From a virus, in the IMG/VR virus record IMGVR_UViG_3300046533_000125, positions 1 through 47,819 of that record: 47,819 nt of DNA, one strand, 5' to 3'. Position numbers and translations under genes: made by a program. Below, one piece after another: positions 3,911 through 45,031 of this stretch. Each line of letters opens with the position of its first letter. The stretch's first letter is position 1. The notes beneath the pieces were generated by a model. The model was not told where the DNA came from, made no database searches, and was given only the letters and a program-made list of their open reading frames with translations.

Positions 3911-4738
3911 TTACTCCGCGTCGGACCCGGCAGCGAACCGGTCGGCTGCCGTGAGCGGGGCGGTGGGCACGTCGGTGCGCTCGTGCCGGATGTAGCTGAA
4001 CAGATCGGACATGGTGGCATCGCTGATGGGCTGCACCGGCATGTAGGCGTAGCGGTTGCCGGTGGTGGCGGTCTCGTGAGGCACGCAGTCCACCACCCGG
4101 ACCGGGCCGTCCTTGGTGTCCACGATGCGGATCTCGATGATCAGATCAGGCACCGTGGCGACGGTGTCCTTGGCGCTGCCCCGGATCTTCGGCAGCTTCC
4201 ACACCTCACGGGTCAGCTCGTCCTTCTCGGTCTTGATGTGATAGACGCTGACCCCGAGCGGCTTCATCGAATGGAGGAGCCACATCACCTTGTTGGTCCA
4301 CTTGGCGACCAGATCCCACTGGTCCCATTCGAGCTTCCGGCCGTGCCCGATCTCGTCAATCTTCCAGTCCTGGAGGACCGACAGCGTGTCGAGCATGACG
4401 CCGTCGTAGCCCGCACCGGTCGGATCTTCGGCCAGCTCCATGATGATCTTGCTCACCGTGGCGGCGTCACCGTAGTCCACGCCCACCACGTCCACGTTCG
4501 GGTACTGGTCGGCGTATCCAGCACACCCCCCATCCACGTCGATGGCCAGGATGCGGGAGTAGCCGGGCACCTCGATCAGTGAGGCACCGAGGGTGGACTT
4601 GCCGCGCTTCGGGTGGCCCAGGATCATGATCGACTTGGGTTCGTTGAGGGCCTGCGCCTTTTGGATGAGGACACCCCCGATGAATCGCGGTTCAGATTCC
4701 AAGGATGGGATCGGTTGGGCCGCTTGGGCTTTCGTCAC
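3911..4738 (-). CDS. Sak4-like P-loop ATPase (RecA-fold annealing/recombination protein)
   Basis: 275 residues from a GTG start (4736-4738). Walker A is G-H-P-K-R-G-K-S at 41-48 and Walker B is G-V-M-L-D-T at 113-118. The length, single P-loop domain and position between a DUF669-like protein and a RecB-like nuclease fit the Sak4 group of phage recombinases. It overlaps the upstream nuclease gene by 47 bases, so the two are co-translated. A general AAA/RecA-like ATPase is the alternative label. Confidence 0.75.
   Translation of the reverse strand: MTKAQAAQPIPSLESEPRFIGGVLIQKAQALNEPKSIMILGHPKRGKSTLGASLIEVPGYSRILAIDVDGGCAGYADQYPNVDVVGVDYGDAATVSKIIMELAEDPTGAGYDGVMLDTLSVLQDWKIDEIGHGRKLEWDQWDLVAKWTNKVMWLLHSMKPLGVSVYHIKTEKDELTREVWKLPKIRGSAKDTVATVPDLIIEIRIVDTKDGPVRVVDCVPHETATTGNRYAYMPVQPISDATMSDLFSYIRHERTDVPTAPLTAADRFAAGSDAE
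4520..4530 (-). repeat. GGGGGTGTGCT copy 4
   Basis: Sense in the Sak4-like gene, frame reads Gly-Gly-Cys-Ala. Confidence 0.9.
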
Positions 4739-5456
4739 GTCTCGCTCCGTTACGTTTGATCAGGACACCGGTAGGCAGCGTCAATGAGTTGCAGTGGAAG
4801 CACTCTGGGTCTGATCCCAGATCTGGTAGTTCTCCGGCGAGCACCATGTTCCAGATGGTGGTGGCTCTGGCGAGGGCGCGCAGTGCGATGTCGGGATCGA
4901 AAGGCTCTACCTCGTAATAGATCTCGCTGAGGGAGAACCCGTCGCGCGGGATGTAGAAGTTGGCGACGGACCGCACGTCGTAGCCCTCGGCGTGCAGCCC
5001 GAGACCGTACAGGTTGCGCTGAACACGGTATTGCTGGCCGGAACCGTTCATCTTGTAGTCCCGGATCTTGTCCTTCTTGCTGCCCTTCCAGTCAACAACG
5101 GTGCCGGTGGGCACGTGGAACAGATCGACGTTCCCGCTGATCCGGCCGTACCCTGCGATCTCTCCGCAGACGGTGCGGTGTTCGAGCAGGCACGTGCCCA
5201 GTGACCCGACGTGCTGGGCGATCAACCGCTCCAGCTTCTCGTGCATGGCCGTGCCGATCCACGTCGGCAGCGTGGCGCTGGACGGGGAGAACGGCATCGG
5301 GTACGCCATGTGGGCCATCGCCCTGCCCAGACAGTGGTCGCACGGATCACCGATCTGACTCGGCCCGACCCGGACCTGATGGCTCCGTTGGTTGGGAGCG
5401 CCCATCAGGTAGGCAACGCCGTCCAGGAAGGCGCGGGCCGCGCCGATATCATTCAT
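4692..5456 (-). CDS. RecB/Cas4-like PD-(D/E)XK nuclease
   Basis: 254 residues. M-H-E-K-L-E (71-76) supplies the motif histidine, G-N-V-D (108-111) the first acid, V-V-D-W-K (120-124) the D-x-K pair, and Q-Q-Y-R-V-Q-R-N-L-Y (141-150) the Q-x-x-x-Y motif, the complete RecB-family set. A CxxC near residues 39-42 and another near the C-terminus (C-F-H-C) could hold an iron-sulfur cluster as in Cas4/AddB. Start ATG 5454-5456 overlaps the previous stop as ATGA. Likely an exonuclease that makes single strands for the adjacent Sak4-like protein. Confidence 0.8.
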   Translation of the reverse strand: MNDIGAARAFLDGVAYLMGAPNQRSHQVRVGPSQIGDPCDHCLGRAMAHMAYPMPFSPSSATLPTWIGTAMHEKLERLIAQHVGSLGTCLLEHRTVCGEIAGYGRISGNVDLFHVPTGTVVDWKGSKKDKIRDYKMNGSGQQYRVQRNLYGLGLHAEGYDVRSVANFYIPRDGFSLSEIYYEVEPFDPDIALRALARATTIWNMVLAGELPDLGSDPECFHCNSLTLPTGVLIKRNGARRDESPSGPTDPILGI

Positions 5457-8207: not shown

Positions 8208-9713
8208 TCACCCCCTCAGTGCCGTCGTCATGTGAACAGTTTGCGCATTGAGTGAATCAAGCTGGTCGATCTCAATAGTGTCCCGAGCCTCTAATGAATA
8301 CGAGTTCACTGCCCGCGTTTGTCCATCTCGTACCAGTCGGCCCGCCGCTTGGGTATTGAGAACCCCGTTATTCGTAAGGCTGAACCAGATCTCTGTCGAA
8401 CACGCCCACTGGAGACCATCGACACCCTCACCGATGGCCCCGATCTGAGCGACGATCACCTGCACCCCGCTTCCATCCCCGCCGTTCTGAGGTGCGTGCT
8501 GGATGAAGCTGTCCTTGATCCGCTGGCGGTTGGTGGCGTTGACCGCGCCGTACCAGCCCTCGGCCCGGACCTTGGCCTTGGCCAGCCGCGCCACGATGGC
8601 GGGGATGATCCCCGCAGAGTGCGTCAGGATCAGGACGCGCTCCCCCTCGGGCACGTCGGCCATGATGTCCATCACCGCGTCGATCTTGGTGGACGTGCAG
8701 CCGTCCGCGAACCGGAGCTTCATCACCTCCGACTCGTCCTGCGTCCCGTCCGGGTTGGACTTGAGCAACCGCACCATCTCCGGCGTCGGCACGGCCAGGC
8801 AGACCTGACGCAGCCGGGTGCCGAGCACCAGCGGGTAGCCGTGCGTCTGGATCGGGGTGTCGTGCTCCTCCACCCACGCGAACATCCGCCGCTCCAGCTC
8901 GTCGTAGATCTTGCGCTGAGTGGCCGACAGATCGACGCCGATCTGGTGCGTGACCCGGCGTGGCAGATCCTCCTGGATGCCACGCGGGTGGTACTCACAG
9001 CACGCGAAGTCCTGCTCGTGCCTCCAGTAGCACGGCATGGCGCGGGCGATCCCGCCCGGCAGCCGCTCCGACTTGGAAGGCTCGTACACCCCGCCGTACT
9101 GGTTGTAGACCTTGCCGACGTAGTTCTCCACGAACGGCCAGAAGGCGTGGAACTTGAGATCCTTCCGATCCGGCCACAGCGAGTGCGCCACACCGAACGC
9201 TCCGGCCGGGCGGTTCCCGTACGGCGTGGCGGACAGGGTCATCCGCCACCCGCCACGCCTCGCAACGGCATTGGCCGCATAGCTGAACATGAGGAAGCTA
9301 TCGGACTTCCTGTTCTGTGCCCGGTGGATCTCGTCACCAATCAGGAAGTCGATCGGGCAGGCGTCAAGGGAGAACTGACGCAGGAACTCCCAGCCCCCGA
9401 AGTACCAGCCGGGGATGCCCTCACGCAGACCGATGATGTTCTCCGGCTTGCTGGAGGTGACGAACTTGAGGTGCTGATCCGGACCGGCGAGCATCTTGAT
9501 CGTCCGATCCCAGCCGTCCTGAGTGTTGAGCGGCGCGACGATCAGGACGACCAGTCCGCGCTTCGCTGCGGTGGCCACCTCGATCACGGCCTGCACGGCG
9601 GTGGCCGTCTTGCCGCCACCGACCACGGTGGCGTTGAGTCCTGCCTTCGTCGGCTCCGAGAGGAACCGTGCCACGTCCGCCCGTTGGTCCGGGCGCAGTG
9701 TGAGCTGCCTCAT
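8208..9713 (-). CDS. Superfamily 2 DNA helicase
   Basis: 501 residues from ATG 9711-9713, supported by AGGAG upstream; a longer in-frame start is unsupported. Walker A G-G-G-K-T at 32-36, DEIH box 127-130, S-A-T-P (motif III) at 161-164, and Q-A-A-G-R-L-V-R-D-G-Q (motif VI) at 455-465 make a complete SF2 set, close to SNF2/DEAD-type phage helicases. Likely an ATP-dependent DNA translocase in replication or recombination. Confidence 0.85.
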   Translation of the reverse strand: MRQLTLRPDQRADVARFLSEPTKAGLNATVVGGGKTATAVQAVIEVATAAKRGLVVLIVAPLNTQDGWDRTIKMLAGPDQHLKFVTSSKPENIIGLREGIPGWYFGGWEFLRQFSLDACPIDFLIGDEIHRAQNRKSDSFLMFSYAANAVARRGGWRMTLSATPYGNRPAGAFGVAHSLWPDRKDLKFHAFWPFVENYVGKVYNQYGGVYEPSKSERLPGGIARAMPCYWRHEQDFACCEYHPRGIQEDLPRRVTHQIGVDLSATQRKIYDELERRMFAWVEEHDTPIQTHGYPLVLGTRLRQVCLAVPTPEMVRLLKSNPDGTQDESEVMKLRFADGCTSTKIDAVMDIMADVPEGERVLILTHSAGIIPAIVARLAKAKVRAEGWYGAVNATNRQRIKDSFIQHAPQNGGDGSGVQVIVAQIGAIGEGVDGLQWACSTEIWFSLTNNGVLNTQAAGRLVRDGQTRAVNSYSLEARDTIEIDQLDSLNAQTVHMTTALRG

Positions 9714-21329: not shown

Positions 21330-21338
21330 TGCTAGTAT
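21330..21338 (+). promoter_or_regulatory. Candidate rightward (structural) promoter, extended -10
   Basis: TGC-TAGTAT fits an extended -10 box; no good -35 lies upstream. It precedes the first rightward gene by about 95 bases and is the best candidate in the divergent gap. Confidence 0.45.
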
Positions 21339-21433: not shown

Positions 21434-21730
21434 ATGACCGCACCACTGTTCGTGGCCGTCGATGAGGACGAGGTTCCGGAGGCACATCCTCACCGGGCGG
21501 GGAAGTATGACGGTCTGATCGAGGCGGCGTTCGCGGCTCCGGGGCAATGGTTCAAGGTGGCACGGACCTTCAAGACCCGTCAGACGGCGATCGCGCTCAA
21601 GAAGAACTACGAGGATGAGACCGACACGGACGGCAACGTCGTGACGGTGCGGCCGGTGGAGACCTCGTCGGGCTGGACGGTGTACGTCTCGGTGCAGCCG
21701 ACAGCCGAGCAGGAGCCCATCGAGGACTAG
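21434..21730 (+). CDS. Hypothetical protein, first gene of the rightward arm
   Basis: 98 residues from ATG 21434-21436 with AGAGAGGA upstream; an in-frame upstream start lacks a ribosome site. A helix-rich centre (W-F-K-V-A-R-T-F ... A-I-A-L-K-K-N-Y) is followed by a short beta hairpin (V-R-P-V-E ... W-T-V-Y-V-S-V). Such proteins often precede terminase in actinophages, function unknown. A stem-loop follows its stop. Confidence 0.7.
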   Translation: MTAPLFVAVDEDEVPEAHPHRAGKYDGLIEAAFAAPGQWFKVARTFKTRQTAIALKKNYEDETDTDGNVVTVRPVETSSGWTVYVSVQPTAEQEPIED

Positions 21731-21740
21731 GCACGGTCTG

Positions 21741-21751
21741 GGGGGTGTGCT
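21741..21751 (+). repeat. GGGGGTGTGCT copy 12
   Basis: Non-coding; forms one arm of the 21741-21772 stem-loop. Confidence 0.9.
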
Positions 21752-21772
21752 CCCATCCGGGAGCACACTCCC
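21741..21772 (+). terminator. Stem-loop built on a GGGGGTGTGCT copy
   Basis: GGGGGTGTGCTCCC pairs with GGGAGCACACTCCC through a 4-base loop (ATCC): 14 bp with one G-T wobble. It starts 10 bases after the first rightward gene. No T-run follows. Possible terminator or protein-binding hairpin between this gene and the terminase. Confidence 0.6.
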
Positions 21773-21812: not shown

Positions 21813-21824
21813 TACGATCCGGCC
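21813..21824 (+). promoter_or_regulatory. Leaderless-start element of the small terminase gene
   Basis: TACGAT followed by exactly six bases (CCGGCC) and ATG 21825. No ribosome-binding site at normal distance. A -10 box here would start transcription at or near the ATG. Confidence 0.45.
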
Positions 21825-22649
21825 ATGACGGACACCACCCGGAGGTTGCGGCAGCGGCAGCAGTCACCCCTGGCCAGACCCGCCACACCCCCACTGGGTG
21901 ATCCACCGGTTCACCCGGATGACCCCGTTCGGACCAGCGCATCCGTGTTCGATCCTGTCACCCAACCGGGTGACGAACCGGGGTCTTACACCGAGGACGA
22001 CCTGGACATCCGGCCGGAGGTGACGGCCCGGATTTCGCAGATCATGAAGGACGGGATCTCCTACGCGCACCGGCACCAGGGCACGGTGCAGGGCGAGTCG
22101 ATGTTGGACGACACGATCTACCAGATGCGGTTGATGGGGTTGTCCACGCGGGAGATCTCACAGCGGCTGAACGAGTCGGTGTCGGAGCAGGAGGTGGCGC
22201 GGCGGATCGGGTTGATGCTGGCGCGGATGGACGAGCTGAGTCCCGCCGAGTACCGGCAGCTCCAGATCGGGCGGTTGGAGGCGATCGTCAACTTCCTGTG
22301 GGCGATGGCGAGGGGCGGGAGCGCCGACCACATCGAGTTGTTGATCAAGGCGATCGAGCGGTTGAACAAGATGTTCGACCTGGAGACGGAGAAGCAGCGG
22401 ATCGAGATCGAGTTGATCACGACGCACCAGGCCACCATGTTGATGTCCGTGGTGGGGGGTGTGCTCCAGGTGATCCTGGGTGACCAGCGGGTGTTGTCGG
22501 CCTTGTCCCGCGAGGAGGTCAACACGTTGGCGGCGGAGGCCCTGGACGCGGCGTCCTCGACCATCTCCACCGCGCAGGGCCAGGTGCTGGTTCCGGTCAA
22601 CGATCCGTCCCGTTCTGCCGCTAAGCTCGTGCTGTCGCAGCGGCCCTGA
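21825..22649 (+). CDS. Terminase small subunit (putative)
   Basis: 274 residues. Residues about 95-130 (M-R-L-M-G-L-S-T-R-E-I-S-Q-R-L-N ... E-V-A-R-R-I-G) form a helix-turn-helix followed by long charged helices, the build of small terminases that recognise the packaging site and recruit the large subunit. It lies directly before the large terminase and is separated from it by a terminator. Pro-rich disordered N-terminus of about 50 residues. Confidence 0.65.
   Translation: MTDTTRRLRQRQQSPLARPATPPLGDPPVHPDDPVRTSASVFDPVTQPGDEPGSYTEDDLDIRPEVTARISQIMKDGISYAHRHQGTVQGESMLDDTIYQMRLMGLSTREISQRLNESVSEQEVARRIGLMLARMDELSPAEYRQLQIGRLEAIVNFLWAMARGGSADHIELLIKAIERLNKMFDLETEKQRIEIELITTHQATMLMSVVGGVLQVILGDQRVLSALSREEVNTLAAEALDAASSTISTAQGQVLVPVNDPSRSAAKLVLSQRP
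22455..22465 (+). repeat. GGGGGTGTGCT copy 13
   Basis: Sense in the small terminase gene, Gly-Gly-Val-Leu. Confidence 0.9.
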
Positions 22650-22686
22650 CGCGGTTGGCTCCGGTGTCAGTGCGTCCACGACCACG

Positions 22687-22732
22687 GAGGACCGGCCCCA
22701 CCGCCTCTTGCCCGGCATCGGGGCCGGTCCTC
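22687..22732 (+). terminator. Terminator between small and large terminase
   Basis: Perfect 13-bp stem, GAGGACCGGCCCC with its complement, 20-base loop, 37 bases after the small terminase stop and followed by TCGGTCC. Confidence 0.65.
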
Positions 22733-22747
22733 TCGGTCCATGAGAAC

Positions 22748-22759
22748 TAGCATCCAGGC
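22748..22759 (+). promoter_or_regulatory. Leaderless-start element of the large terminase gene
   Basis: TAGCAT, six bases (CCAGGC), then ATG 22760. It comes directly after the terminator, so a new promoter is needed here; no ribosome-binding site is visible. Confidence 0.5.
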
Positions 22760-24304
22760 ATGACCCTGGCCGGAGCCATCCACCAAGTTGCGGACGAGTT
22801 GCGGATGCGGGCTCGTGCGGAGATCTACCGCACGGACCCGGTGTTGTGGATGCGGGAGCGGTTGAACAGCCGGTGCTGGTCCAAGCAACGCGAGATCTCC
22901 GAGTCCCTGGTGGTCAACAAAAAGACGGCGGTGAAGTCGTGCTTCGGGGTGGGTAAGACCTATCTCGCGGCGCTGTTGGTCTGCTGGTGGCTGGACGTAC
23001 ACCCTCCGGAGCAGACGGTGGTGGTCACCACCGCACCCACGGATTCACAGGTGAAGAAGCTGTTGTGGGAGTACATCCGGAAGATCCACCGCGAGAACCA
23101 CCTGAACGGTGATGTCACGGAGAATGCCGAATGGAAGTCCGAGAATCGTGACGTGATCGCGTACGGGCGGAAACCCGCCGACGCCAACATGTCCGCGTTC
23201 CAGGGGCAGCATCTGCGATACCTGTTGGTGATCGTGGACGAGGCGGGTGGTGTGCCGCAGATGATCTGGGACGGTGTGGACGCCATCACCACGATGGATA
23301 CCAACCGTGCGCTGGTCATCGGGAATCCGGAGGAGGCCAACACCGAGTTCGGCCGTATCTTTCTTGACGACGACCCGGTATGGAACAAGATCTCGATATC
23401 CGCGTACGACTCGCCCAACCTCACGGACGAGCACGAAGAACTGCCCAAGGAGATGTGCGAACTCCTCGTCTCCCGGCAATGGGTTCAGGAGCGGGAGAAG
23501 AAGTGGGGAGTAAAGGACAGGCGGTTCGTGTCCAAGGTGCTGGGTGAGTTCCCCCGTGAGGCCACGGACCAATTGTTCCCGCGCTCACTACTGCTGGCCG
23601 CTCAGGAGCGAACCATCTTCCCCGCGTCGGAGTCTCGCCCGGTACTCGGCGTAGACGTAGCCCGCTTCGGTGGTGACCGGACGGTCATCCTCAGCAATGA
23701 TGGTGGACACATCGAGATCAGTGCAGCATGGGACAAGTCCGATACATTTGATACGGCACAGCGGGTACATCAGTTGGCCATTCGACTCGGAGTAAAAGAA
23801 GTGCGGGTGGACGGCACAGGTCTGGGTGCGGGCGTCGTGGATCAACTGATGCATATCGAGCAGCACGTCTACTCGGTGATAGAGGTGAACGGTAGCGCTG
23901 CAAGTCCAGACATACGTCAATGGTGGAACTATCGCGCCTATGGGTACGACAATCTCCGGTCTCTCCTGCGAGACGGAAAGGTCGATCTGCCCGTGCAGGA
24001 CGACAGTCACGACAAGCCTGACAACGGTATGGAGGACGACGAGCCCAAATTGCTCAGCGATGAGCTGGAAGGGCAGCGGTACAAGTTCATGCGCGGGGCC
24101 ATGTTGATGGAGAGCAAGGACGACATCAAGCGTAGGGGAGGCAAGTCTCCCGACTACGCCGACGCCCTGGTGTATGCCACCCTGCCGTTCGACGCCGCGC
24201 TTCCGGGAGCCGAGCTGAACGCCGGGGACGTGGTGGATGTGGACGCGATGTCCGCGATCGAGGACGAACTGGTGCTGGGCCTGTACGCAATCTCTCCAGT
24301 CTAA
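22760..24304 (+). CDS. terL: Terminase large subunit
   Basis: 514 residues. Walker A K-S-C-F-G-V-G-K-T (59-67) and Walker B L-L-V-I-V-D-E-A (155-162) give the packaging ATPase; G-V-D-V-A-R-F-G-G-D (297-306) begins the RNase H-fold nuclease. These cut and pump DNA into the prohead. Length and order fit tailed-phage terminases. The nuclease half (from about 23,340) is noticeably less GC-rich in codon choice than the ATPase half. Confidence 0.9.
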   Translation: MTLAGAIHQVADELRMRARAEIYRTDPVLWMRERLNSRCWSKQREISESLVVNKKTAVKSCFGVGKTYLAALLVCWWLDVHPPEQTVVVTTAPTDSQVKKLLWEYIRKIHRENHLNGDVTENAEWKSENRDVIAYGRKPADANMSAFQGQHLRYLLVIVDEAGGVPQMIWDGVDAITTMDTNRALVIGNPEEANTEFGRIFLDDDPVWNKISISAYDSPNLTDEHEELPKEMCELLVSRQWVQEREKKWGVKDRRFVSKVLGEFPREATDQLFPRSLLLAAQERTIFPASESRPVLGVDVARFGGDRTVILSNDGGHIEISAAWDKSDTFDTAQRVHQLAIRLGVKEVRVDGTGLGAGVVDQLMHIEQHVYSVIEVNGSAASPDIRQWWNYRAYGYDNLRSLLRDGKVDLPVQDDSHDKPDNGMEDDEPKLLSDELEGQRYKFMRGAMLMESKDDIKRRGGKSPDYADALVYATLPFDAALPGAELNAGDVVDVDAMSAIEDELVLGLYAISPV

Positions 24305-24319
24305 AAGGGGAAAAGGTGG

Positions 24320-24331
24320 TAGCGTCCGGGG
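24320..24331 (+). promoter_or_regulatory. Possible leaderless-start element of the HNH gene
   Basis: TAGCGT, six bases (CCGGGG), ATG 24332. A purine-rich AAAAGGTGG lies 12 bases before ATG, so ordinary initiation is also possible. Confidence 0.35.
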
Positions 24332-24856
24332 ATGATCTCTGAGGTTGCACAGCGACAACTGGACAATCCCACCGAGTATGTGGCCGGGCCATCCAAGCGG
24401 TACCCCGATGGACTGCGGCGTCGGACGCCGTTGGGGATGAGGTTCAGCGAGCACTACGAACCTGGCAGTCCGGATGAATGCTGGATCTGGACCGGCAAGT
24501 GCCAATGGACGGGTCACGCCAAGTTCAACCTGGACAACACCTGGATGCAGGCGAGCCGGATCATGTTCTATCTGACCGAGGGTTACTTCCCTCCGGTGGT
24601 ACGCCACACCTGTGACAACCCCCCGTGTGTGAACCCGTATCACCTGCTGGGTGGGACACAGGCGGACAACCTGCGGGACATGTCGAATCGTGGTCGCGCA
24701 CGCGGTCAGAACATGACTCACTGCCTGCGAGGGCACCCGATCTCCGGACCTGACGCGGATGTCTACATCTCGAAACGTGGTCAGCGTCAGTGCCGCGCCT
24801 GCGTTCGGATCACGGTGAATCGGCGGCGCGCGCTTTATGGCAGGAGAAGGGCCTAG
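24332..24856 (+). CDS. HNH endonuclease between terminase and portal
   Basis: 174 residues. R-H92-T-C-D-N-P-P-C-V-N-P-Y-H104 is the HNH core, followed by N-L-R-D-M-S-N-R-G-R, as in the nuclease at 7703-8206. A second zinc-type pair (C131, H135, C154, C157) closes the protein. HNH proteins beside terminases can assist packaging in HK97-like phages, but this HNH_3 type also fits a homing endonuclease. Confidence 0.85.
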   Translation: MISEVAQRQLDNPTEYVAGPSKRYPDGLRRRTPLGMRFSEHYEPGSPDECWIWTGKCQWTGHAKFNLDNTWMQASRIMFYLTEGYFPPVVRHTCDNPPCVNPYHLLGGTQADNLRDMSNRGRARGQNMTHCLRGHPISGPDADVYISKRGQRQCRACVRITVNRRRALYGRRRA

Positions 24857-24865
24857 AATCCGGCC
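24854..24865 (+). promoter_or_regulatory. Leaderless-start element of the portal gene
   Basis: TAGAAT (five of six matches to the -10 consensus; its TAG is the HNH stop), six bases (CCGGCC), ATG 24866. The nearest purine-rich site is ~19 bases away. The 19 bases from ATCC to GGACAC are identical to the small terminase start. Confidence 0.5.
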
Positions 24866-26425
24866 ATGACGGACACGCCCAAGAGGGTGCGACCTGCCGC
24901 GCGCCCCCGTGCGGACGTGACGACGGAGGACCGGATCGACGCGGCCCTGTTCCACCAGATGCGGGAACGGCTGGACGAGGAGCTGAACACCACCGAACTG
25001 TTGCAGGAGAGCGTGGAGGATCTGCAACGGGCGGTGGACGAGATCGGGTGGGTGCCGGTCGGATCGTCCACCCCGCAGGGTCTGCGGCTGTCCACGATCC
25101 TGCGGTCCAGCGACGTGATGCGGGCGATGGTCGCCGGGAACCCGATGATCAAGAAGGGCGTCCGCGCCCGCGTCGGATTCATCTGGGGCGAGGGCATCCA
25201 TTACACGGTGGAGGGCGGGAAGTCCCAGCAGGGAAAGACCCCGCCCGCCATGCAGAAGATCATCGACGCCAATGACGACCTCGTATTCAACGACGCTGCC
25301 TACGAGGAATTGGAATCCGCTGCCGCGACGGACGGGAATCTGTTCTTCGTCATCGACAAGAAACGGCAGCGGATATTCCGGATGCCATTGTTACAGGTGG
25401 CGAACTGGACCCTGGACCCCCAGGACGGGGAGACCATCCAATTCATCCTGCGGCGCTGGTCCATTCAGACCATTGACGACAAGACCGGCCAGATCTTCTC
25501 GCAGTTCCAGCAGGCGTGGTACCCCACCGTCGAATACTTGGAGGATGGGGGTGTGCTCCCCGGCTCCATCGGGGAGTTCCCCGTCGAGCAGTACATGGCG
25601 GTCAACATCGTGCAGGTCAACAAGCAGCTCGGGTGGATCTGGGGCGTACCCGATCTGATGCCGGTGCTGTTCTGGGCGCAGGCGTACAAGGAGTTCCTGT
25701 CCAGCCAGTACAGCCTGGTCCGCTCGCTGGCCCGGTTTGCGTTCAAGGTCACGGACACCCGGCCGAAGGGCCAGGGGGCCAAGAGCGCGGCGGTCAAGCT
25801 CGCCCAGCCGGTCGGTGGATCATCGGAGTCAGGAGCCACGTCCACCCTGCCGGGTGGCATGGACCTGTCCGCGATCAACAAGAGCGGTGCCAATGTCGAT
25901 TTCGAGGCGGGGAAGCCGCTGGCGACGATGGTGGCGGCTGGTCTGGAGATCCCGCTGTCGGCCATGCTCGCGGAGGATGCCGGATCTGCGGACGCCTTGC
26001 TGGACCCCACCACCGCCAAGGCCATGCAGGCACGACAGAGGTTGTGGGCGGACGCCTTCGAGGACATGTTCCGCTACATGGGCATCGTGAAGCCCCGCGT
26101 GATCTTCCCGCCGATCCAGTCCGCGCCCGTCCACCGTGTGGTGCAGGCCATCATCACTGCCGCCGCCAGCGGGGTTCTCTACCCCGACGAGGTGCGCGGC
26201 CTGATCGTGAAGGCGATGCTGGACTATGGGATCGAACCAAAGCCGGGACTTCCTAAGCCTGGTGAGTGGACGGACTATGCCAACCCGGCGCAGCAGCATC
26301 CGGCTACATCACCGATTCCGACACCTGACCCGACTAATACCGGGACGCCAGGCAGCAAGAGCCCAGCGGGACCGGCTTTTGATGGCAGCCACGACCAACG
26401 ACCGAGCCAAGGTCCGTCGAGTTGA
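24866..26425 (+). CDS. Portal protein
   Basis: 519 residues, in portal position after the terminase. Features of the family are visible: an N-terminal helix pair, a wing with I-K-K-G-V-R-A-R-V-G-F-I-W-G, a clip-like central region, and a C-terminal P-L-S-A-M-L near residue 370. The last ~60 residues are Pro/Ser/Gly-rich and disordered. Forms the dodecameric DNA channel of the capsid. One GGGGGTGTGCT copy is inside it. Confidence 0.85.
   Translation: MTDTPKRVRPAARPRADVTTEDRIDAALFHQMRERLDEELNTTELLQESVEDLQRAVDEIGWVPVGSSTPQGLRLSTILRSSDVMRAMVAGNPMIKKGVRARVGFIWGEGIHYTVEGGKSQQGKTPPAMQKIIDANDDLVFNDAAYEELESAAATDGNLFFVIDKKRQRIFRMPLLQVANWTLDPQDGETIQFILRRWSIQTIDDKTGQIFSQFQQAWYPTVEYLEDGGVLPGSIGEFPVEQYMAVNIVQVNKQLGWIWGVPDLMPVLFWAQAYKEFLSSQYSLVRSLARFAFKVTDTRPKGQGAKSAAVKLAQPVGGSSESGATSTLPGGMDLSAINKSGANVDFEAGKPLATMVAAGLEIPLSAMLAEDAGSADALLDPTTAKAMQARQRLWADAFEDMFRYMGIVKPRVIFPPIQSAPVHRVVQAIITAAASGVLYPDEVRGLIVKAMLDYGIEPKPGLPKPGEWTDYANPAQQHPATSPIPTPDPTNTGTPGSKSPAGPAFDGSHDQRPSQGPSS
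25547..25557 (+). repeat. GGGGGTGTGCT copy 14
   Basis: Sense in the portal gene, Gly-Gly-Val-Leu. Confidence 0.9.
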
Positions 26426-44096: not shown

Positions 44097-45031
44097 TGGC
44101 AGTCACTGCATCCGGTATCTGGTACCCCGGTCCGACCGATCCGATCACGCCCATCGAGAACGTGTTCAGCACGATGGCCCAGTCCGTCGAAACCGTGCTG
44201 GGCGTGCGCCTGTTCGCCACGACGGCGGCGCGTGATGCTGCGTACGCCTCAGTGCCGTTCAAGATGTGCGTCGTCGGTGCCAACTATGACGCGGGTATCT
44301 GGTATGTCCACCAGGCCGGTGCGTGGCAGGTCATTGACGCCATTGCCGGTGTCAACACACTGATGCCCAACCCGGTACCGACGACCTCGTTCGCCGGAGC
44401 GTACCCGACAGGTCTGTCGATGTTCGCCCTGACGTTGACGCAGGCGACCTCTGATGGTGGCTATCCGGAGAACAGGACGGCGACGGTTTACACCATTGTC
44501 ACGTCCGCTGGATTGGCCGTCCAATACTTCGTCGGACTGGCAACCGGTAACCCGTCGATGTGGATGCGGACGCTCGGCACGTCGGCCAACTCGACGTGGA
44601 AGTTGATCGTCTCCGGGGCTGACGTGATGCCGACCACCTACACCCCGAACCTGACGGCAGCGACCACCAACCCGACCGGGCAGACCACCACGGGCCGGTA
44701 CTCGGTCACGGCGGGGGTCTGCTCCTTCACGTTCTCCGCCACCATCGGAACCGGCACCGGGTCCGGTGCCTATTCGATCTCCGTGCCCGTGCCGGTCGGT
44801 GCCAACTGGCTCGCTGGCTATGGTGGGTCCGGTGCCATCGCGGGCATCGGGAATGGCTCGTTGCAGCAGGGCAGCAACCGGGTACAGGGTCAGTGGGGCA
44901 TCCTGAGCGGGTCGCTGAGGCTGTACGTGCCAACCGCGTTCAACACGGTCTCAGCCGTCACCAGCGTCTTGCCTTTCGCACTTGCCAGCGGATCGGTCAT
45001 GTACGGCGAGGTTCAATTCGGGACGACATAA
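44096..45031 (+). CDS. Minor tail protein (receptor-binding candidate)
   Basis: 311 residues, ATG overlapping the previous stop (TAATG). N-terminal domain with W-Y-P-x-P, then Thr/Ser/Gly-rich beta sequence and a C-terminal strand ending V-Q-F-G-T-T, as in actinophage fibre proteins. Function inferred from position. Confidence 0.6.
   Translation: MAVTASGIWYPGPTDPITPIENVFSTMAQSVETVLGVRLFATTAARDAAYASVPFKMCVVGANYDAGIWYVHQAGAWQVIDAIAGVNTLMPNPVPTTSFAGAYPTGLSMFALTLTQATSDGGYPENRTATVYTIVTSAGLAVQYFVGLATGNPSMWMRTLGTSANSTWKLIVSGADVMPTTYTPNLTAATTNPTGQTTTGRYSVTAGVCSFTFSATIGTGTGSGAYSISVPVPVGANWLAGYGGSGAIAGIGNGSLQQGSNRVQGQWGILSGSLRLYVPTAFNTVSAVTSVLPFALASGSVMYGEVQFGTT

What the first reader, a model, noticed from the sequence alone, without database searches (positions are those of the whole stretch)
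21813..24871. TANNNT exactly six bases before four right-arm ATGs: leaderless transcripts
Small terminase (TACGAT), large terminase (TAGCAT), HNH (TAGCGT) and portal (TAGAAT) all have a -10-like hexamer, six bases of form CC-N-G-G/C-N, then ATGA. Most lack a ribosome-binding site in range. Stem-loops precede the first two, so each would need its own promoter. Leaderless mRNAs with this spacing are common in actinobacteria. Two of the starts share a 19-base identical stretch.
Basis: partly seen in the sequence, partly recalled or inferred. Interest (0 to 1): 0.7.

Follow-up and report, generated by a model that had tools for sequence, protein, structure and literature searches.

The report
Leaderless starts of phage packaging genes
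Four neighbouring DNA-packaging genes of an unnamed, probably actinobacterial phage each have a promoter placed so that the messenger RNA should begin at the gene's first codon, with no ribosome-binding leader, and related phages show the same exact spacing, so this looks like a real habit of this group but a known kind of gene start.

Summary
TA-NNN-T-N6-ATG occurs exactly four times in the window, both strands, and all four are the starts of adjacent genes: TerS-like 21825, TerL 22760, HNH 24332, portal 24866. About 0.07 is expected over 65 gene starts (P about 1e-6). Three of the four have almost no Shine-Dalgarno pairing; HNH has a possible one.

In seven TerL-related actinophages (509 annotated starts), TANNNT stands exactly 6 bases before the start 23 times, against 1 at spacing 5, 4 at spacing 7 and about 3 at a typical spacing (P 1e-12). 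Three further phages fetched afterwards repeat it: 11 at spacing 6 and 5 at spacing 7, against about 0.5. Phages phiC31 and YuA show none at spacing 6. Independent marks of transcription starting at the A of ATG are present: T at -7 tied to TA at -12, pyrimidine at -1, G at -14, weaker Shine-Dalgarno pairing.

This is the known actinobacterial leaderless signal. No 5' ends have been measured. The TerS start is the least secure, the hairpins have no T-run, and co-transcription is not excluded.

The parts
21745..21768 (.). perfect 10-bp inverted repeat GTGTGCTCCC-ATCC-GGGAGCACAC before the TerS-like gene; terminator-like but without a T-run
   Evidence: its left arm is one copy of a dispersed GGGGGTGTGCT motif
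21813..21818 (+). -10-like hexamer TACGAT, first T 12 bases before ATG 21825
21825..22649 (+). TerS-like gene; inferred transcript start at A 21825
   Evidence: homologous to the genes just upstream of TerL in Yappy (E 1e-11), Nonagon (2e-7) and Amigo (6e-5); homology covers only about residue 90 onward and codon periodicity is weak in the first 40 codons, so this start is the least secure of the four
22687..22732 (.). 13-bp inverted repeat GAGGACCGGCCCC ... GGGGCCGGTCCTC between TerS-like gene and TerL; terminator-like, no T-run
22748..22753 (+). -10-like hexamer TAGCAT
22760..24304 (+). terminase large subunit; inferred transcript start at A 22760
   Evidence: PHROG 2, E 9.6e-33; tblastn to Amigo aligns from query residue 2, supporting this start codon; Shine-Dalgarno pairing only -2.7
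24320..24325 (+). -10-like hexamer TAGCGT
24332..24856 (+). HNH endonuclease gene; inferred transcript start at A 24332; alternative Shine-Dalgarno AAAGGTGG ends 12 bases before the ATG
   Evidence: PHROG 826, E 7.1e-28
24854..24859 (+). -10-like hexamer TAGAAT; its TAG is also the HNH stop codon
24866..26425 (+). portal protein gene; inferred transcript start at A 24866
   Evidence: PHROG 10963, E 2.5e-96; portal starts of Jojan60 and Kradal (spacing 6) and of CMP1, Cassita and Musetta (spacing 7) have the same signal

Best explanation
Each of the four ATGs is the first base of a primary transcript. Host RNA polymerase with its main sigma factor recognises a -10 element of the form (G)G-TANNNT, with no conserved -35, and starts at the A of ATG 7 bases after the hexamer ends. 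The 5'-AUG is then translated directly, without a Shine-Dalgarno. The hexamers, spacing, weak ribosome-binding sites and family-wide recurrence are shown here. The transcription start, the sigma factor used and leaderless translation are inferred. Downstream head genes, which have good Shine-Dalgarno sequences, probably ride on the portal transcript (inferred).
For: The only four TANNNT-N6-ATG in the window are four adjacent gene starts (P about 1e-6). Spacing 6 is specific: 23 against about 3.3 expected in seven related actinophages, and 11 against 0.5 in three phages fetched later. TA at -12 occurs 56 times against 5 to 38 at other offsets, and 50% of those have T at -7 against 0 to 29% elsewhere; pyrimidine at -1 in 22 of 28 sites against 242 of 562 other starts (P 3e-4); G at -14 in 21 of 28 against 214 of 562 (P 2e-4); median Shine-Dalgarno energy -4.75 against -7.8. 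Start codons at 32 sites are 29 ATG, 3 GTG, no TTG, fitting the ATG/GTG rule for leaderless translation in mycobacteria (PMC4633059). TerS-gene starts of Nonagon and Musetta and portal starts of five relatives carry the signal. No sigma factor domain was found in the window.
Against: No RNA data. No host is known; it is inferred from relatives. No -35 element or consensus sigma-70 promoter was found. HNH has a possible Shine-Dalgarno. The TerS ATG lacks support from homology and codon periodicity. Some hexamers overlap upstream stop codons (portal site). TerL starts of most relatives lack the signal. The annotated starts used as a yardstick could have been influenced by annotators or gene finders that model leaderless genes.
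Confidence: 0.82

Rival explanations
1. The hexamers are real -10 elements but transcription starts a few bases off the ATG, giving very short leaders (1-5 bases) or a start inside the codon.
For: Spacing 7 is also enriched in relatives: 4, then 5 (four of them in Musetta). HNH has G at -1.
Against: Spacing 6 dominates in most genomes and -1 is mostly a pyrimidine before a purine, as expected if A of ATG is +1.
Confidence: 0.1
2. The genes are ordinary members of one late operon transcribed from upstream (for example TAGTAT at 21333) and translated by weak Shine-Dalgarno or coupling; TANNNT arises from TAG/TAA stop codons, SD-like TAGGA, or chance.
For: The portal hexamer overlaps the HNH stop codon; HNH has AAAGGTGG; hexamers such as TAGGAT and TAAGGT in relatives contain SD-like bases; the hairpins have no T-run.
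Against: Stop codons or Shine-Dalgarno sequences do not predict T at -7, a pyrimidine at -1 or a spike at one spacing. The window hexamers contain no SD core, and intergenic gaps of 94 and 110 bases precede the first two genes.
Confidence: 0.08
3. The shared boxes are operators for a phage regulator placed over the start codons; the 19-base identity of the TerS and portal starts is such a site.
For: Exact 19-base repeat at 21817 and 24858.
Against: Only two of the four share it; in relatives only the promoter-type positions are conserved; no copy of the 19-mer was found in IMG/VR.
Confidence: 0.04

Closest known systems
Leaderless genes of Actinobacteria (TA-like signal, Zheng et al. 2011, PMC3160421; Shell et al. 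2015, PMC4633059)
   Same: TANNNT with first T 12 bases before the start, little information in the three middle bases, ATG or GTG start, weak or no Shine-Dalgarno.
   Different: In a phage, at consecutive packaging and head genes; no RNA evidence here.
Predicted leaderless promoters of mycobacteriophages (cluster O PL1 and PR2, PMC4351075; Adephagia P90, PMC11373665)
   Same: A host-type -10 placed so that +1 is the first base of the start codon in an actinobacteriophage.
   Different: Those cited are single promoters, of a divergent intergenic pair or of gene 90; here four in a row at TerS, TerL, HNH and portal.
Leaderless mRNAs of coliphages lambda and P2 (cited in PMC4633059 and PMC3160421)
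   Same: Phage mRNAs lacking a 5' leader.
   Different: Different hosts and promoter types; isolated cases.

Membership tests
Actinobacterial leaderless gene (TANNNT type) | TANNNT with first T about 12 bp upstream of the start codon | tested here: met
   four sites; spacing-6 peak in relatives
Actinobacterial leaderless gene (TANNNT type) | start codon ATG or GTG | tested here: met
   four ATG; 29 ATG and 3 GTG over 32 sites
Actinobacterial leaderless gene (TANNNT type) | no Shine-Dalgarno in range | tested here: inconclusive
   met for TerS, TerL and portal; HNH has AAAGGTGG at a long spacing
Actinobacterial leaderless gene (TANNNT type) | transcription start at the first base of the start codon | not testable with these tools
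   needs 5'-end mapping; indirect support from pyrimidine at -1
Actinobacterial leaderless gene (TANNNT type) | translation from a 5'-terminal AUG | not testable with these tools
   needs ribosome profiling or reporters
Actinobacterial leaderless gene (TANNNT type) | actinobacterial host | tested here: inconclusive
   host unknown; portal and best TerL relatives are overwhelmingly actinophages
Consensus sigma-70 promoter (-35 and -10) | TTGACA-like -35 at 16-18 bp | tested here: not met
Late promoter of a phage-encoded sigma factor | sigma factor gene in the phage | tested here: not met
   no Sigma70_r2 or Sigma70_r4_2 match in the window record, which may be incomplete

The most novel reading that the evidence does not exclude
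Placing leaderless promoters at TerS, portal and other head genes is a conserved regulatory design of a broad lineage of actinobacterial siphophages, giving packaging genes their own late transcription units and a translation mode independent of Shine-Dalgarno recognition.
Probability: 0.35. Interest if true: 0.6.

Novelty: new member of a known kind. Interest (0 to 1): 0.45.

Why it matters
It gives a simple rule (TANNNT exactly 6 bases before the start) that fixes start codons and promoters in actinophage genomes, and predicts that parts of their late gene programme are made of leaderless mRNAs. Searches of the held papers found single predicted leaderless phage promoters but no report of this pattern at packaging and head genes. 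It is directly testable with cultured relatives such as Amigo, Nonagon or Edmundo in laboratory hosts.

Tried and rejected
Close relatives of the window: none found in IMG/VR (distant TerL relatives only; none for portal, TerS-like or protease; no copy of the 19-mer), in GTDB, or by DNA in phage records. Phage-encoded sigma factor: not found; WhiB is in four relatives but not in the window. Hairpins as a general companion of these starts: sites are not richer in upstream hairpins than other starts. -35 element: none. The window alone, tested against all ATGs, is not striking (4 against 1.35); significance comes from gene starts and from relatives. The 15 IMG/VR TerL relatives gave only a faint excess at spacings 6 and 7 with uncurated ORF starts.

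Full report
WHAT IS THERE. The window is a 47.8-kb virus record. A rightward late arm begins at 21434: a 98-aa gene, a TerS-like gene (21825-22649), TerL (22760-24304; PHROG 2), an HNH endonuclease (24332-24856), portal (24866-26425; PHROG 10963), head protease, and a capsid-family protein. The TerS-like gene is homologous to the gene immediately before TerL, or one gene removed from it, in Yappy, Nonagon and Amigo. Portal and best TerL relatives are almost all phages of Arthrobacter, Microbacterium, Streptomyces, Clavibacter and Curtobacterium, at 25-46% amino-acid identity. No near relative was found.

CHECK OF THE OBSERVATION. TACGAT-CCGGCC-ATGA, TAGCAT-CCAGGC-ATGA, TAGCGT-CCGGGG-ATGA and TAGAAT-CCGGCC-ATGA are at the stated places, and TANNNT-N6-ATG occurs nowhere else on either strand. 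The hexamer is rare here (104 in both strands). By all ATGs in the window 1.35 coincidences are expected. By 65 gene starts 0.07 are expected, P about 1e-6. That gene list came from a simple codon-usage caller which preferred GTG 21945 for the TerS-like gene; I counted 21825 instead. Leaving this gene out, three of 65 still gives P about 6e-5 (my arithmetic). Shine-Dalgarno pairing is weak at TerS (-3.0), TerL (-2.7) and portal (-4.7) and normal at HNH (-8.5, through AAAGGTGG at a long spacing); 93% of 55 other genes are at -5 or stronger.

TEST IN RELATIVES. I took annotated gene starts from seven TerL-related actinophages (Molivia, Amigo, Yappy, CMP1, Nonagon, Cassita, Kradal) and counted TANNNT at every spacing. 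Spacing 6 has 23 of 509 starts; spacings 0-5 have 1 to 3 each, spacing 7 has 4, and the mean of spacings 0-4 and 8-20 is 3.3 (P 1e-12). With the hypothesis fixed, three more phages (Musetta, Edmundo, Crosby) gave 11 at spacing 6 and 5 at spacing 7, against about 0.5 per spacing (P 8e-12). Streptomyces phage phiC31 and Pseudomonas phage YuA gave none at spacing 6. Jojan60, recorded as a Stenotrophomonas phage, gave 5 against 0.29, all in its structural gene arm (portal, protease, major capsid and two others).

INDEPENDENT MARKS. If this were a stop codon or a Shine-Dalgarno, T at -7 should not depend on TA at -12. It does: 28 of 56 starts with TA at -12 have T five bases on, against 0 to 29% at other offsets. 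Pyrimidine at -1 (22 of 28 against 242 of 562) and G at -14 (21 of 28 against 214 of 562) are what a transcription start at A and an extended -10 would give. Shine-Dalgarno energies at the sites are weaker (median -4.75 against -7.8). No -35 is visible. Of 32 starts none is TTG, in line with mycobacterial experiments in which only ATG and GTG work at an RNA 5' end (PMC4633059). The geometry equals that published for Actinobacteria, where the first T of TANNNT is about 12 bases before the start (PMC3160421).

CONSERVATION BY GENE. The gene before TerL has the signal in the window, CMP1, Nonagon (spacing 6) and Musetta; of these, homology to the window gene was tested here for Nonagon only. The portal start has it in the window, Jojan60 and Kradal (spacing 6), and in CMP1, Cassita and Musetta at spacing 7. 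A gene after the major capsid gene has it in Molivia, Amigo, CMP1 and Nonagon. TerL itself has it in the window and Crosby. In Molivia and Amigo the post-capsid hexamer TAGAAT is kept while the spacer has changed (TGGAAC against AGGGTT).

WHAT IS NOT SHOWN. No RNA 5' ends are available. The hairpins before TerS and TerL are strong but have no T-run, and sites in general are not richer in upstream hairpins, so transcriptional insulation of each gene is not established. The TerS start rests on the promoter geometry and on the 19-base identity with the portal start, because codon periodicity in its first 40 codons is weak and homologues align only from about residue 90. The sigma factor is presumed to be the host's: no sigma domain was found in the window. 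The host is inferred only.

VERDICT. Observation confirmed; interpretation supported to about 0.82. It is a known kind of gene start, found in a phage lineage and at genes for which the held literature has no report. The wider pattern across ten actinophages is the more interesting result and is easy to test.

Noticed in passing
window, 24 places, for example 322, 3270, 21741, 22455, 25547, 33231, 46414 (+) and 2437, 11112, 43239 (-): The 11-mer GGGGGTGTGCT is dispersed 24 times over 47.8 kb, mostly inside genes and far above chance; one copy forms the hairpin before the TerS-like gene and two sit directly before an ATG (11110 minus, 46426 plus). Chi-like, regulator-binding or ribosome-binding roles are all possible.
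   Followed up: partly
window left arm, minus strand, starts at 9713, 10254, 11682, 13071, 15215: Left-arm genes repeatedly carry the same ribosome-binding string (GA)ACAGGAGCC(A) shortly before the start codon, in contrast to the four leaderless starts of the right arm.
   Followed up: no
L023 (ON045087.1) 44281-44544 and 4281-4772: Phage Jojan60, recorded from Stenotrophomonas, encodes a real WhiB protein (Pfam E 7e-18) and its portal relatives are almost all actinophages, so its host label or a recent host jump deserves a check; its annotated sigma-H factor has no Pfam sigma domain.
   Followed up: partly
window 14625 and 17397: A 23-base exact direct repeat TGAGATCCCGCTTGAAGTCGTCC in the left arm, the longest repeat more than 60 bases apart.
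   Followed up: no
window 21825-21860 and 24866-24901: TerS-like and portal proteins begin alike (MTDTTRRLR and MTDTPKRVR), extending the 19-base DNA identity; a small duplication or shared start cassette.
   Followed up: partly
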